From contig JAFAPR010000216.1 in the NCBI GenBank assembly GCA_019247075.1, positions 1 to 53,851 on the forward strand: a DNA stretch of 53,851 nt. The letters run 5' to 3'. The first letter of the stretch is position 1. The number at the start of each line of letters is the position of its first letter. A program made the translations under genes and the position numbers. This document shows, piece by piece, positions 50,152-53,851 of this stretch. The notes beneath the pieces are model-generated. The model had not been told where the DNA came from. It worked only from the letters and a program-made list of their open reading frames with translations, and did not search any database. This stretch comes from Solirubrobacterales bacterium. Its GTDB lineage: Bacteria > Actinomycetota > Thermoleophilia > Solirubrobacterales > Solirubrobacteraceae.

Positions 50152-51534
50152 ATGACTGGCGCAATCTATGGCGGCTTGCCGGAGCTCGGTTCGCCGAGCT
50201 TCGACGCCCAGCTGCTCGCTTTCGCGGAGGACCTGCGCGGGGAGGGCGTCGCGGTCGGGACCTCCGAGATGCTCGACGCTTTCGCCGCGCTGCGTCACGT
50301 GTCCTGGCGCGCGCAGGCTGACTTCCGCGAGGCGCTTGGCGCCACGCTGGCGAAATCTCCCGAGGATCGACTGACCTTCGACCTGGTTTTTGACCGTTTC
50401 TTCTTCCGCGCCACCGAAGCCGAGGCGGCTCGACGGGAGCCGGATGGAGGCCGCCGAGACGGCGACGGAAGCGCCCGCTTCGGTCTCGATGCGCTGCGGC
50501 GCCAGATCGCCGCGGCGCTGGCGGACGGCACCGAAGGCACGCTGCGCGACCTGGCCCGGCTGGCGATCGCCGCCCTCGCGGGGGAGGGCTCGGGCGTCGT
50601 CGGCGTCGACGTGCAACGGATCCGTCGGGCACTCGGCCTGAGGACAGAACCACGGCCGCAGCTGCCCCCGGAGGACCCGCGCCGCCGAGGGCTGCCGCGC
50701 GAGCAGCTCAGGCGCTTCGAGCACCACCTCCGGCGGGAGCTCGAGCGCGAGGCAATCGCACGGACCGCGACGCTGCCGCCTAAACGCCCGCTGTCCGAGC
50801 TCGAGCGGGCGCTGCCGTCGGGTCCGATCCAAGACTTGGCTGCCGTCCATTGCGTGGTCGCTCAGATGAAGCGGGCGCTCGCTACCGAGGGTCACGTCCT
50901 GCGCGGCCGCCGGCGCCACGCGCACGTCGACGTGCGGCGCACCATGCGGGCATCGCTGCAGACCGGCGGCGTGCCAGTCGAGCTCAAGTACCGCCCACAC
51001 CGTCCCCGGCGCCCCGAGATCTTCGTCCTTTGCGACGTCTCCACCAGCGTCACCTCGGCGAGCACCTTCTTTCTCTCGGTCCTGCACGCGCTCCACGACG
51101 CCTTCCGCAAGCTGCGCTCGTTCGTGTTCATCGAGCGGATCTCCGAGGTGACCGACGTGTTCGAGCGCGAGCGCGACTTTCGCGCAGCGAGCGATGCCGT
51201 CTCACGCACCGCCGGCGTCGCCGATGTCTCTGGCTACACCGACTACGGTCGGGTATGGAGCGAGTTTTTGGGGCTCGTGGAAGCGGAGCTGCACCCCCGG
51301 GCGACGGTGATCGTGCTCGGCGACGCACGCACCAACGGCCGCCCTCCGCGCGAAGAGGCGTTCGCCGCGATCACCAGCCTCGCGGGACGCACGTTCTGGT
51401 TGAACCCCGAGCCCCGGCTGTACTGGAACTACGGCGACTCCGTGATCGCCCGCTACGAGCTGCATTGCACCGCCTTCGAGTGCTGGCGAACGGACCAGCT
51501 GGAGGGATTCGTCAAGGCTCTGGCGCGGATGTGA
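50152..51534 (+). CDS. VWA-domain protein (CoxE-like), MoxR partner
   Basis: 460 residues. A ~270-residue helical part is followed by a VWA domain with the MIDAS motif DVSTS (in IFVLCDVSTSVTSASTFFLS), and a later threonine and aspartate (GYTDYGRVW, VLGDARTN). The arrangement MoxR-then-VWA is that of CoxD-CoxE systems, which insert metals or remodel complexes. No CO dehydrogenase genes occur in the window. ATG 50152. Confidence 0.87.
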   Translation: MTGAIYGGLPELGSPSFDAQLLAFAEDLRGEGVAVGTSEMLDAFAALRHVSWRAQADFREALGATLAKSPEDRLTFDLVFDRFFFRATEAEAARREPDGGRRDGDGSARFGLDALRRQIAAALADGTEGTLRDLARLAIAALAGEGSGVVGVDVQRIRRALGLRTEPRPQLPPEDPRRRGLPREQLRRFEHHLRRELEREAIARTATLPPKRPLSELERALPSGPIQDLAAVHCVVAQMKRALATEGHVLRGRRRHAHVDVRRTMRASLQTGGVPVELKYRPHRPRRPEIFVLCDVSTSVTSASTFFLSVLHALHDAFRKLRSFVFIERISEVTDVFERERDFRAASDAVSRTAGVADVSGYTDYGRVWSEFLGLVEAELHPRATVIVLGDARTNGRPPREEAFAAITSLAGRTFWLNPEPRLYWNYGDSVIARYELHCTAFECWRTDQLEGFVKALARM

Positions 51535-51584
51535 GCTCGGTCCAGCGCAGGCCCGCGAACCACACGCGCTAGCATCGGTGACCC

Positions 51585-51690
51585 ATCAACAGGGGTGCTG
51601 GCGGGAGAGCCGGCTGAGATAGCGCCTCGCAACCCGGCGCTGACCCTTCGAACCTGTGGGGTAATGCCCGCGAAGGGAGTGACGCAGACA
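51585..51690 (+). promoter_or_regulatory. TPP riboswitch (thi box)
   Basis: The consensus is easy to see: AGGGGTGCTGG, then GGCTGAGATAGCGCC (with CTGAGA), a stem AGCGCC/GGCGCT, then ACCCTTCGAACCTGTGGGGTAATGCC and CGAAGGGAGTG. These match the P2-P5 regions that bind thiamine pyrophosphate. It lies directly upstream of a nitrate/sulfonate/thiamine-type ABC ATPase, so TPP probably turns the transporter off. Exact ends of P1 are approximate. Confidence 0.95.
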
Positions 51691-51738
51691 TCCATCGAGG
51701 TCCGCCGCAAGCGGCCTCGCGACGGTCAAAACATCGGC

Positions 51739-52452
51739 GTGCACGTCGAGGCGGTGGCGCGTACGTTCACTACGCGGCGCGCGACGGTCGTCGCCCTTGA
51801 GGGCATGACGCTCCGGGCGCGCGGGCGGGAGATCGTCGCGGTCGTGGGTCCCAGCGGCTGCGGCAAGACCACCTTGCTCGAGCTGATCTGCGGGTTGCAG
51901 CGGCCCGATGCCGGAACGGTGCGGGCGGCTCCGGCGGCACTGATGCCCCAGCGCGACCTGCTGCTTCCGTGGCTGAGCGCCCTGGACAATGCCTGCCTTG
52001 CCCTCCGCGCGCGGGGGCTCTCGCGCGCTGCCGCCCGCGCGGCCGCGGCGCCATGGCTCGAGCGGTTTGGCCTCCAGGGATTCGAGCGCAACCGGCCAGC
52101 CGAGCTCTCGGGCGGCATGCGGCAGCGGGTTTCGTTCCTGCGCTCGCTGCTCGCCGGTAAGCCGGTGCTGGCACTGGATGAGCCGTTCGCGGCGCTCGAC
52201 GCGATCACCCGGCTGCAGATGCAGGGCTGGCTGGGTCGCGTGCTCGAGCGCGAGCCGCGCACGGTCGTGCTCGTTACGCACGACGTCGAGGAGGCGGTTA
52301 TGCTCGCCGACCGGGTGGTCGTGATGTCGCCGCGGCCGGGCCGGGCGGTGGCGGAAATCGACGTTTCGCTGCCGCGCCCGCGACATCGCACCGACCCGGA
52401 GGCGGTGGCCCTGCGAGAGCGGGCGCTGGCTGCCCTCGGAGTGCCGGTATGA
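51739..52452 (+). CDS. ABC transporter ATPase, probable thiamine-precursor uptake (ThiZ-like)
   Basis: 237 residues from GTG 51739 (the frame is open further up through the riboswitch). Walker A GPSGCGKTTLL, signature LSGGMRQRVSFLRSLLAGKP, Walker B VLALDEPFAALDA, H-loop LVTHDVEEAVMLADRVVVMSPRPGR; this is the SsuB/TauB/ThiZ branch. The TPP riboswitch makes a thiamine precursor (HMP-type) the likely substrate. Its stop overlaps ATG 52449 of the next gene, which is broken by an IS element. No ribosome site was found, so the start is uncertain. Confidence 0.88.
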   Translation: MHVEAVARTFTTRRATVVALEGMTLRARGREIVAVVGPSGCGKTTLLELICGLQRPDAGTVRAAPAALMPQRDLLLPWLSALDNACLALRARGLSRAAARAAAAPWLERFGLQGFERNRPAELSGGMRQRVSFLRSLLAGKPVLALDEPFAALDAITRLQMQGWLGRVLEREPRTVVLVTHDVEEAVMLADRVVVMSPRPGRAVAEIDVSLPRPRHRTDPEAVALRERALAALGVPV

Positions 52453-52463
52453 GCCGTCCTGTG
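52449..52463 (+). pseudogene. First codons of an interrupted permease gene
   Basis: ATG 52449 overlaps the ATPase stop as ATGA, the usual ATPase-permease coupling in this family. The frame reads MSRP before the IS110 element begins. The rest of the gene is absent or lies beyond the element, outside the window. Inference from gene order; no permease domain remains visible. Confidence 0.45.
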
Positions 52464-53717
52464 TCAACCCGTGTGTGGGATTGTGATTGTGAGTTGGCGT
52501 TGGAGGGCGTTGTGGCGGCTGGGGTCGTAGGGGGTGTGGTGTTGCCAGCATTGCCAGAGGACGCGGCTCCATGCGCGTCCGACGGTGCGGATCGCTTTGG
52601 GGTGGTCGTGGCCGCGGGCGGTGGCGTCGGCGTAGTGGCGGTGCGCCCAGGGGTGCCAGTGGCGTGTGCTGTCGGCGAGTGTGGTGAAGGCGCTGCGGAG
52701 CCGGTGGTCGCAGCCGCGGCGGAAGCAGGCGACTTTGCGTTTGCCGGATTCCACGGCGACGGGGGTCATGCCGGCGTCGGCGGCGAGGTGCTCGGGGGTG
52801 GGGTAGCGCGCGCGGCAGTCGCCGATCTCGGCCAGCAGGGTGGCGGCGCAAATCACGCTCTTGGGGTCTTTGAACAGCGAGAGGAAGATCTCGCCGTCGG
52901 GGTGGGTTCGGACGGCGTGCGCGATCTCGGAGGTGAGCAGGCGAATCTGTTCGACGATCGGCTTGAGCGCGGCGACCAGGGCGAGCACGATTCCGCGACG
53001 AGCGTCGGCCTCGAGCTGTGCGGCTCGGCCAGAGGGCGCGGATCGAAGACGATCGAGCAGCTCGCTGACGCCGCGGCGTCCGCAGTAGTGGTGGCGGGCG
53101 AGGAACTGGGCGAGTCGGCGTTCGCCCAAGCTGCGGGCATCGAGGGGAGAGGGATACCGCTCCAGGAAGGCGAGCGAGATCGGGCTGTCGAGCTCGGAGA
53201 AGATCTCGATTGCGCCGGGCCAGAACCGCTGGAGTTCAGCGCGCAGCTGGTTGCACAACGCAACGCGCTGCTCGACGAGCAGCTCCCGTCCACGGGTGAG
53301 CGCCCGCAGCGCTTTGGTCTCATCCCGGTCGGGAACCAGCACGCGAAAGCGGTGATGGTCGGTGCGAGCCAGTTCGCTCAGCACAAACGCGTCGAACCGA
53401 TCGGCCTTGCCGCCCGCAGGGCCGAAGCGGGGGCGCGCGGCGTGCACCTGGTTGGGGTGCAGCGCGAGCACAGTGAGCCCAGCGTCCAGGAGACGCTCGA
53501 CCAGCAGCCCATCAGGGCGCTCCACCGCGACGCGCTCGACACCGAGCGTAACCAGCGTCCGGCACAGCTTTCTCAGCCCGCACTCGGTGTGGGCGATCGT
53601 CTCGGCCCACAGCCGCTCACCGTCCCCGTCAGCGACCCACACATCGTGAGTGTCGCTCGCCCAATCCACTCCTGCACAAGCCGCCACCTGTTCACCTCCG
53701 CTCGCCTCGCTCGACAT
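52464..53717 (-). CDS. IS110-family transposase (DEDD recombinase)
   Basis: 417 residues. N-terminal RuvC-like DEDD domain begins GVDWAS with D18; later acidic positions fit VERPDGLLVERLL and KADRFDAFVLSELA. The C-terminal Transposase_20 domain (LLAEIGDCRARYPTPEHLAADAGMTPVAVESGKRKV) carries the serine near the end (VESG). IS110 enzymes recombine circular DNA using a bridge RNA encoded in the element. ATG 53717. The frame is intact, so the element may be active. Confidence 0.95.
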   Translation of the reverse strand: MSSEASGGEQVAACAGVDWASDTHDVWVADGDGERLWAETIAHTECGLRKLCRTLVTLGVERVAVERPDGLLVERLLDAGLTVLALHPNQVHAARPRFGPAGGKADRFDAFVLSELARTDHHRFRVLVPDRDETKALRALTRGRELLVEQRVALCNQLRAELQRFWPGAIEIFSELDSPISLAFLERYPSPLDARSLGERRLAQFLARHHYCGRRGVSELLDRLRSAPSGRAAQLEADARRGIVLALVAALKPIVEQIRLLTSEIAHAVRTHPDGEIFLSLFKDPKSVICAATLLAEIGDCRARYPTPEHLAADAGMTPVAVESGKRKVACFRRGCDHRLRSAFTTLADSTRHWHPWAHRHYADATARGHDHPKAIRTVGRAWSRVLWQCWQHHTPYDPSRHNALQRQLTITIPHTG

Positions 53718-53851
53718 GACGCCAACCGGGAGCTACCGTTGCGGATGCTCATTGACGGGCCCTCACCAGGGCTACGTCCTGTTGCCGCTTCAGGCAGCCC
53801 CCACCGTCGGGAGGGGCAGGTCTCATACAGGCCCTCGAACGAGCAAGCGTC
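53718..53851 (-). ncRNA. Candidate bridge RNA region of the IS110 element
   Basis: The non-coding end upstream of the transposase, the place where IS110-group elements encode their bridge RNA. On the minus strand it can fold: GCCCC/GGGGC, CCTG/CAGG and GCCCT/AGGGC hairpins are visible, the last with loop GGTG. The octamer CGTCCTGT (53775-53782, plus strand) also spans the inner IS junction at 52455-52462. The 5' end of the RNA is outside the window. Confidence 0.5.

What the first reader, a model, noticed from the sequence alone, without database searches (positions are those of the whole stretch)
53718..53851. Candidate bridge RNA in the transposase-upstream end
IS110-group recombinases use an RNA made from this end to choose donor and target DNA. 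The region is structured and non-coding. This would be an RNA-guided recombination module in an actinobacterial genome outside the well-studied examples.
Basis: partly seen in the sequence, partly recalled or inferred. Interest (0 to 1): 0.7.

Follow-up and report, generated by a model that had tools for sequence, protein, structure and literature searches.

The report
Operon-junction jumping gene with guide RNA
The stretch is most of the guide RNA of a bacterial jumping gene that tends to insert where one gene's stop overlaps the next gene's start, and whose opposite strand has in most copies been kept free of stop signals from end to end, as if to let ribosomes read straight through.

Summary
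The region is most of a bridge RNA upstream of an IS110-group transposase (52464-53717, minus). The element's left end runs 74 nt past the contig end and is recovered from two other contigs (208 nt in all). A two-loop fold is supported by compensatory changes (14 of 36 pairs; 0 of 500 shuffles). All four guide segments match their own insertion site or element end better than shuffled pairings (0 of 20,000 each); the window copy's own left-target guide is weak (3 of 7).

Beyond the finding: these elements insert at NTGAG, where one gene's TGA stop overlaps the next gene's start. The opposite strand of the whole element, bridge-RNA region included, is then one reading frame, from the target's start codon to the TGA overlapping the downstream start, in 15 of 19 full-length copies with NTGAG at both ends (0 of 7 other class copies). 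Codons that would close it are absent from 10 transposases (0 of 521 CTN/TCN codons; 37 expected, about 19 by host usage) but not from 13 other relatives (47 of 578). I read this as selection to keep operons translatable through the insertion. IS900's hed ORF is the precedent; the mechanism is inferred, not shown.

The parts
53718..53851 (-). left end (LE) of the element as far as the window holds it; 74 nt more lie on contigs C334/C152
53724..53851 (-). in-window part of the bridge RNA core (LE positions 49-202 in all; transcript start near LE position 22 is inferred from the -10-like hexamer)
   Evidence: model R1 match 53724-53850, 80.1 bits, the contig end cuts the RNA; fold and coordinates
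53846..53851 (-). 3' part of the left-target guide (LTG AACGACGCT, whole stretch 53854-53846)
   Evidence: only 3 of 7 with either left flank
53822..53828 (-). right-target guide (RTG GTATGAG); 7 of 7 with the window's own right target CTCATAC
53774..53781 (-). left-donor guide (LDG CAGGACGT); 7 of 8 with the right end CAGGACGG
53748..53754 (-). right-donor guide (RDG CAATGAG); its reverse complement CTCATTG is the first 7 nt of the left end
   Evidence: sequence (the window copy is not a row of the tests)
52464..53717 (-). IS110-group transposase (417 aa), DEDD residues D18, E66, D106, D109 and serine S324
   Evidence: PF01548, PF02371; NF033542 above cut-off; profile match to IS621 8wt6; residues invariant in A3
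52462..52467 (-). TTGACA, possible -35 box of the promoter that the circle junction would form (17 nt to CATCCT in LE)
   Evidence: function inferred
52454..52461 (-). right-end donor stretch CAGGACGG
52449..52453 (.). right-end core ATGAG: stop (TGA) of the ATPase gene overlapping the start (ATG) of the antisense ORF
52449..53851 (+). antisense ORF through the whole element (491 codons with the C334 part; 467 in the window)
51595..52452 (+). host ABC ATPase gene upstream of the insertion (true start probably further in, since this ORF start lies in the TPP riboswitch match)
   Evidence: permease partner on C334

Best explanation
The region is the greater part of a bridge RNA of an IS110-group insertion sequence in an actinobacterium of the Solirubrobacteraceae kind. 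Shown by sequence: a two-loop RNA fold in the long left end; a target loop and a donor loop whose guides follow each element's own insertion site and ends. Inferred from IS621: the circular element forms a promoter across the joined ends, the RNA is made, and the recombinase uses it to pair element and target. Shown in addition: most copies of this group sit at an overlap of a TGA stop with an NTG start (NTGAG, mostly NTGAGC) and, where host genes could be named, lie antisense to them; the antisense strand of the whole element is then, in 15 of 19 full-length copies, a stop-free frame that begins at the target's start codon and ends at a TGA overlapping the next gene's start. Inferred: ribosomes leaving the upstream gene re-start in the antisense frame, cross the element and re-start on the downstream gene, where the left end also supplies an AGG-type Shine-Dalgarno, so the operon stays transcribed and translated and the insertion costs little.
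For: Transposase family. Full left end from two contigs and insertion between ABC ATPase and permease; in 12 of 14 related loci examined the ATPase lies directly upstream of the permease, and in all 12 its stop is an NTGA (7 ATGA, 4 GTGA, 1 TTGA). Fold: 90.9% of cells paired, 45 cells with double changes against 15.2 in shuffles, 0 of 500; slid structures 39.5-46.2%. Guides: LTG 4.34 of 7 vs 2.61 permuted (41 sites); RTG 6.29 of 7 vs 4.33 (17); LDG 7.62 of 8 vs 6.84 (16) and RDG 6.08 of 7 vs 4.97 (36); 0 of 20,000 each. Antisense ORF: 10 of 11 class copies with NTGAG at both ends and 0 of 7 others; 5 of 8 such copies outside the class. Antisense-stop codons: CTA+TCA 0 of 521 against 37.3 expected (about 19 if scaled by host ORFs), vs 47 of 578 in 13 relatives. 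Left-end part alone: 0 stops in that frame in 10 of 10 copies. The spacer from left terminus to RNA core varies from 24 to 135 nt yet is a multiple of three in 25 of 26 copies with an ATGAG left core; in the 15 copies with other cores it is in 6. Tree: five relatives not shown to sit at such overlaps nest inside the start-targeting set, beside L023. Left-flank ORFs sent to Pfam (chosen for length) all hit: 15 of 15.
Against: The window copy's left-target guide matches its two left flanks at only 3 of 7 positions each, near the permuted mean of 2.6. No RNA or protein data. Four of 19 full-length copies with NTGAG at both ends lack the exact frame: L071 (damaged transposase), L127 (internal stop), L126 (intact, but CTGAG at the right end) and L129 (intact transposase, 61% GC, 14 stops in the frame), the last a plain counter-example. 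Over all 13 transposases from outside the class CTA+TCA are 17 of 638, fewer than the 52 expected but not absent. In the GC-rich flanks another frame is open almost as often as the gene frame (17 vs 19 of 26), and 7 of 26 ATGAG left flanks show no long ORF. In five of the ten copies one further antisense frame is also free of stops across the left end. Host-like ORFs in the window also use CTA/TCA less than other A-ending codons (0.041 vs 0.080). The -10 hexamer is weak and not kept in five of six distant copies.
Confidence: 0.85

Rival explanations
1. The antisense ORF encodes a functional protein of the element (as first proposed for hed of IS900), and the element targets start codons to get it expressed.
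For: Same logic is in the title of Doran et al. 1997 (seen only in reference lists); the frame is kept in 15 of 19 copies.
Against: No Pfam match up to E 0.1 for the 467 codons in the window. Identical-residue 4-fold sites look no more conserved in start-targeting pairs than in other pairs of similar divergence (read from the pair tables, no formal test), although codon-aligned antisense coding would constrain them.
Confidence: 0.2
2. The antisense ORF is a by-product of GC-rich codon usage and has no function.
For: Codon-aligned antisense frames of GC-rich genes are often long; stops there need TTA, CTA or TCA, which are rare. The one lower-GC copy with NTGAG at both ends, L129, has the frame closed.
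Against: 0 of 521 where 37 are expected from other A-ending codons (about 19 by host usage), and 47 of 578 in relatives of the same genus with similar composition; exact end at the left-end TGA in 15 copies of differing length, all 2 mod 3; spacers in multiples of three; also open across the left end outside the transposase gene.
Confidence: 0.06
3. The structured upstream region only regulates the transposase (leader, attenuator or antisense sRNA as in ISPpu9) and is not a guide.
For: ISPpu9 has regulatory RNAs next to its transposase (abstract seen in the listing).
Against: Four guide segments follow each copy's own target and ends; regulation would not give this.
Confidence: 0.03

Closest known systems
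IS621 and the IS110 group bridge RNA systems (Durrant et al. 2024 PMC11208160, sections 5, 6, 12, 20 read; Hiraizumi et al. 2024 PMC11208158, passages read)
   Same: DEDD plus serine recombinase, long LE with bridge RNA, target loop then donor loop, CT core, a promoter-like pair of hexamers across the joined ends.
   Different: Target is a stop/start overlap of genes, not REP elements; the opposite strand of the whole element is a selected open frame; a conserved 5' stem-loop was not established here.
IS900 with its hed ORF (Mycobacterium avium subsp. paratuberculosis; PMC8141618, passages read; Doran et al. 1997, title only)
   Same: IS110-type element said to aim at translation start signals, with an ORF across the whole complementary strand that lacks its own start codon.
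   Different: IS900 motif is CATGNNNNNNTCTCCTT, which I read as start codon plus Shine-Dalgarno of one gene; here the target is NTGAG, start and stop overlap, and both ends rebuild it. The papers seen in the searches gave no bridge RNA analysis of IS900.
seekRNA of IS1111 and IS110 types (Siddiquee et al. 2024 PMC11187229, passages read)
   Same: RNA from the non-coding region with short target matches to both strands; natural re-targeting between relatives.
   Different: IS1111 members carry the RNA downstream of the transposase and have subterminal inverted repeats.

Membership tests
IS110 group of the IS110 family | DEDD RuvC-like N-terminal domain (PF01548) | tested here: met
   E 1.8e-30
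IS110 group of the IS110 family | C-terminal Tnp domain with conserved serine (PF02371) | tested here: met
   E 5e-13; S324 invariant in 16 sequences, aligned with the ESG motif of IS621
IS110 group of the IS110 family | long LE, short RE, bridge RNA in LE | tested here: met
   LE 208 nt, RE about 15 nt before the stop codon; RNA fold in LE
IS110 group of the IS110 family | two internal loops whose guides match target and donor | tested here: met
   the window copy's own LTG is weak (3 of 7)
IS110 group of the IS110 family | 5' stem-loop ahead of the two loops | tested here: inconclusive
   a hairpin is predicted in the window copy, not tested for conservation
IS110 group of the IS110 family | junction promoter in the circular form | tested here: inconclusive
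   17 nt after TTGACA lies xAnnnT in 16 of 16 class copies (TTGACA itself was part of the pattern that found the right ends); only 1 of 6 distant ones; no RNA data
IS110 group of the IS110 family | RNA bound by the recombinase, RNA-guided recombination | not testable with these tools
   needs experiment
IS1111 group | bridge RNA in RE | tested here: not met
   RE about 15 nt
IS900-like start-targeting elements | antisense ORF across the whole element, start supplied by the host | tested here: met
   window copy and 14 more of 19
IS900-like start-targeting elements | target motif CATGNNNNNNTCTCCTT | tested here: not met
   target here is GCTCAY, that is NTGAGC, in most copies

The most novel reading that the evidence does not exclude
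A widespread actinobacterial branch of RNA-guided IS110 elements has evolved translational transparency: the guide RNA is tuned to the four-base stop/start overlap of operon genes, and the whole opposite strand, including the template of the guide RNA itself, is kept as a stop-free cistron that starts where the upstream gene stops and stops where the downstream gene starts, so the element sits in operons without polarity. The same DNA is read as transposase, as guide RNA and, antisense, as a passage for ribosomes. (Odds lowered from 0.60 to 0.57 on the final recount, which added two full-length copies without the frame.)
Probability: 0.57. Interest if true: 0.82.

Novelty: new variant of a known kind. 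Interest (0 to 1): 0.65.

Why it matters
It gives a natural set of IS110 elements whose guides can be read against their own targets, with re-targeting inside one family (stop/start overlaps versus other sites). It also offers a testable answer to how an insertion sequence can live inside operons without killing the downstream genes, and a possible selective reason for the hed ORF of IS900. If it holds, some bridge-RNA loci are under three overlapping constraints at once, which matters to anyone mining or reprogramming them.

Tried and rejected
Rfam search of 51500-53851 found no bridge-RNA family; the one strong match is a TPP riboswitch nearby. Single-sequence PDB search of the transposase gave nothing; the profile did. 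A scan of genome contigs with the protein gave one relative only. The order scan added no new loci. The idea that the antisense ORF is only GC bias was largely rejected; that it encodes a conserved protein is not supported. A first column-based donor test used wrong columns and showed nothing (LDG and RDG lines); with the right columns it agreed with the hand-read test. A pattern of mine placed the left end of L122, L128 and L130 four bases off (corrected) and missed that of L129 (found). Rows dropped before counts: LTG test 41 of 45 model hits (4 without a recognisable left end); RTG 16 of those 45 with a right end found, plus the window; LDG 16 (lost L073 and had the window instead; one search has L073 and not the window); RDG 36 of 41 (5 cut RNAs dropped). 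In the first RDG test (31 rows) the guide was found by motifs that resemble left ends, so one search is the fairer one. LTG and RTG were read by hand to a positional rule; with model columns gave the same result (41 and 16 sites). Full-length copies with both ends found: 16, L071 and L091 added, and of the 13 distant loci those. L077 has NTGAG at both ends but is deleted to 424 nt and is not counted. The 13 'other' relatives include truncated and stop-containing copies; both ends were seen in 7 of them.

Full report
What is at the coordinates. The window ends inside an insertion sequence. Its transposase (52464-53717, minus, 417 aa) matches PF01548 and PF02371 and NCBI's IS110 equivalog model above cut-off. 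A profile of 16 relatives matches the solved IS621 and ISCro4 transposases, and D18, E66, D106, D109 and S324, invariant in the 16, line up with the DEDD residues and serine of IS621 (catalytic residues named in PMC11208158, passages read). The finding's 134 nt are the left end (LE) as far as the contig goes. Contigs C334 and C152 of the same genome share 73 nt with 53779-53851 and then 74 identical nt with each other, after which they diverge behind ATGAG. So the LE is 208 nt, and two insertions with identical ends over 147 nt exist in the assembly.

The bridge RNA. Eighteen LE cores were aligned. A structure drawn by hand on the window copy (36 pairs: target-loop stem, its apical stem, donor-loop stem, its inner and apical stems) is kept in 90.9% of cells, with 14 pairs and 45 cells changed on both sides; none of 500 shuffles reaches these values, and sliding the partner by 1-3 columns drops pairing to 39.5-46.2%. 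Thirty-three of the 36 pairs are in the free-energy minimum of the window copy. A covariance model found the RNA in 21 of 399 genomes of the class (E 1e-6), 10 of 28 of the genus (E 1e-4) and 11 of 396 of the phylum (E 1e-4), the own genome counted in each. In 8 of the 10 other phylum genomes the match lies directly upstream of a transposase 43-48% identical to this one.

Guides. In the IS110 model (PMC11208160, sections 5, 6, 12 and 20 read) one loop carries left and right target guides, the other left and right donor guides. Read from the loops and compared with each element's own flanks and ends: LTG against left flank, 41 sites, mean 4.34 of 7 against 2.61 (sd 0.18) for permuted pairs; the 26 sites with CTCAT alone give 3.23 of 6 against 1.99. 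RTG against right flank, 17 sites, 6.29 of 7 against 4.33. With guide positions fixed by model columns: LTG 41 sites again 4.34 against 2.61 and RTG 16 sites 6.25 against 4.31, LDG 16 copies 7.62 of 8 against 6.84, RDG 36 copies 6.08 of 7 against 4.97. No permutation of 20,000 reached any of these; permutations do not remove relatedness among copies. The window copy itself: RTG 7 of 7 and LDG 7 of 8, RDG 7 of 7 over the first seven bases of the left end (sequence), but LTG only 3 of 7 with either left flank, C334 or C152, which is near chance. Of five relatives whose left core reads GTAAG, four match a different left target (CTTYGGG before the core) at 6 of 7 and one at 3 of 7, so re-targeting has happened within the family.

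Ends and promoter. The right end is about 15 nt. Joined RE and LE read TTGACA, 17 nt, then xAnnnT in 16 of 16 class copies, which fits the junction promoter described for IS621; TTGACA was part of the pattern by which I found the right ends, so only the spacing and second hexamer are informative. In the distant copies the second hexamer is GCACCA or GCACCC in five of six. Transcription was not tested.

The target. In the window the RE core ATGAG contains the TGA stop of an ABC ATPase gene; the flank on C334 begins ATGAGC and encodes a transporter permease (PF00528). Of 23 other places in the genus with a permease match, 14 were fetched; in 12 of the 14 the ATPase lies directly upstream, each time with an NTGA at the ATPase stop (7 ATGA, 4 GTGA, 1 TTGA; in L112 the permease match starts about 260 nt further on). 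So the insertion split this pair at the overlap. Other copies look alike: 15 of 15 left-flank ORFs sent to Pfam (chosen for length) hit a family (SDR, sulfatase, NADH dehydrogenase 4L, glycogen branching enzyme and others), and 3 of 4 right-flank genes that end at the core TGA. Of 26 left flanks with ATGAG, 19 are open for 60 codons or more, or to the end of the DNA held; the other 7 are L060, L066, L067, L068, L069, L071 and L079. Because another frame is open in 17 of 26, ORF length alone is weak evidence. On the host-sense strand the LE carries AGG about seven bases before the start codon (for example AAGGTTGACCTATGAG) in 25 of 26 copies with ATGAG and 4 of 4 with GTGAG, but in 4 of 11 with other cores.

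The antisense frame. Reading the host-sense strand from the NTG of the RE core, 10 of the 11 full-length class copies with NTGAG at both ends are open for 490-534 codons and stop exactly at the TGA of the LE core; the lengths between cores differ (1469-1601) but are all 2 mod 3. The eleventh, L071, has a damaged transposase (only residues 137-411 align) and a frame closed at codon 320. None of 7 class copies with other cores does this. Outside the class, L120, L122, L125, L128 and L130 do (494-498 codons), while L127 (internal stop in the transposase, length off by a frame), L126 (CTGAG/GTGAG, intact transposase) and L129 (GTGAG/ATGAG, intact transposase, 61% GC, 14 stops in the frame) do not: 15 of 19 in all. 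L122 and L130 are two copies in one genome, and L047 and L120 have one stop each in their transposases. The spacer between left terminus and RNA core runs from 24 to 135 nt and is a multiple of three in 25 of 26 copies with an ATGAG left core (L073 is the exception), against 6 of 15 copies with other cores.

Codon avoidance. The frame is aligned codon to codon with the transposase, so a stop inside the gene needs TTA, CTA or TCA. CTA and TCA are 0 of 521 CTN/TCN codons in the 10 class copies where 37.3 are expected from the A-ending share of other four-fold codons (Fisher 2.7e-15); 0 of 84 in two partial copies; 47 of 578 (34.9 expected) in 13 other relatives; 48 of 1167 in host-like ORFs of the window, where the same reckoning gives about twice as many, so a host-scaled expectation for the 521 is about 19. 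The five distant copies with the frame have no TTA, CTA or TCA in 1971 codons (13.1 expected); all 13 distant transposases together have 17 CTA/TCA of 638, about 52 expected. Fisher values treat codons as independent, which related copies are not. The tree shows long separate branches in the start-targeting set, with L024, L025, L026, L030 and L041, relatives not shown to sit at such overlaps, in one clade with L023 inside it. The LE part outside the gene is free of stops in this frame in 10 of 10 copies; other frames have up to 4, though in five copies one of them is free too.

Reading. Shown by sequence: fold, guides, target class, open frame with exact ends in most copies, and avoidance of the codons that would close it. 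Inferred: production of the RNA, RNA-guided recombination, and use of the frame by ribosomes. I think the frame is kept because translation across the insertion prevents premature termination of the operon's transcript and hands ribosomes to the downstream gene: the frame ends at the downstream start rather than anywhere; relatives with other cores do not keep it; and four-fold sites look no more conserved than in other relatives, where a functional antisense protein would constrain them. L129 shows that the frame is not indispensable.

Known relatives. IS900 is the nearest precedent: its hed ORF lies on the complementary strand, spans the whole element and has no start of its own, and its target motif reads to me as a start codon with a Shine-Dalgarno (PMC8141618, passages; Doran et al. 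1997 seen as a title only). The present group shares the idea but not the motif. I found no paper in the listings, or in the passages read, that links bridge RNA guides, stop/start overlaps and a selected antisense frame; the library lacks most subscription journals.

Noticed in passing
window 51581-51694 (+): TPP riboswitch match (54.1 bits, gathering score 54.3, E 3e-9) at the head of the ABC transporter operon that the element splits.
   Followed up: partly
own genome C223, C98, C68, C361, C189, C277, C216 (L002-L008, L011): Relatives of the element on seven contigs, 68-78% identical in DNA where matched, some cut by contig ends.
   Followed up: partly
L086, L087, L091, L093, L095: Sister copies whose left core reads GTAAG and whose left-target guide reads TTTGGGCT; none has the AGG before the core, and the three with both ends found lack the open antisense frame.
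   Followed up: partly
L066, L075, L076, L077: Bridge RNAs with no or only a remnant transposase match downstream: possible non-autonomous copies or decay.
   Followed up: no
L058-L063, L065, L070, L073, L079, L080, L085 left ends: Spacers of 75-135 nt between left terminus and RNA core, against 48 in the window copy; what the extra sequence does is unknown.
   Followed up: partly
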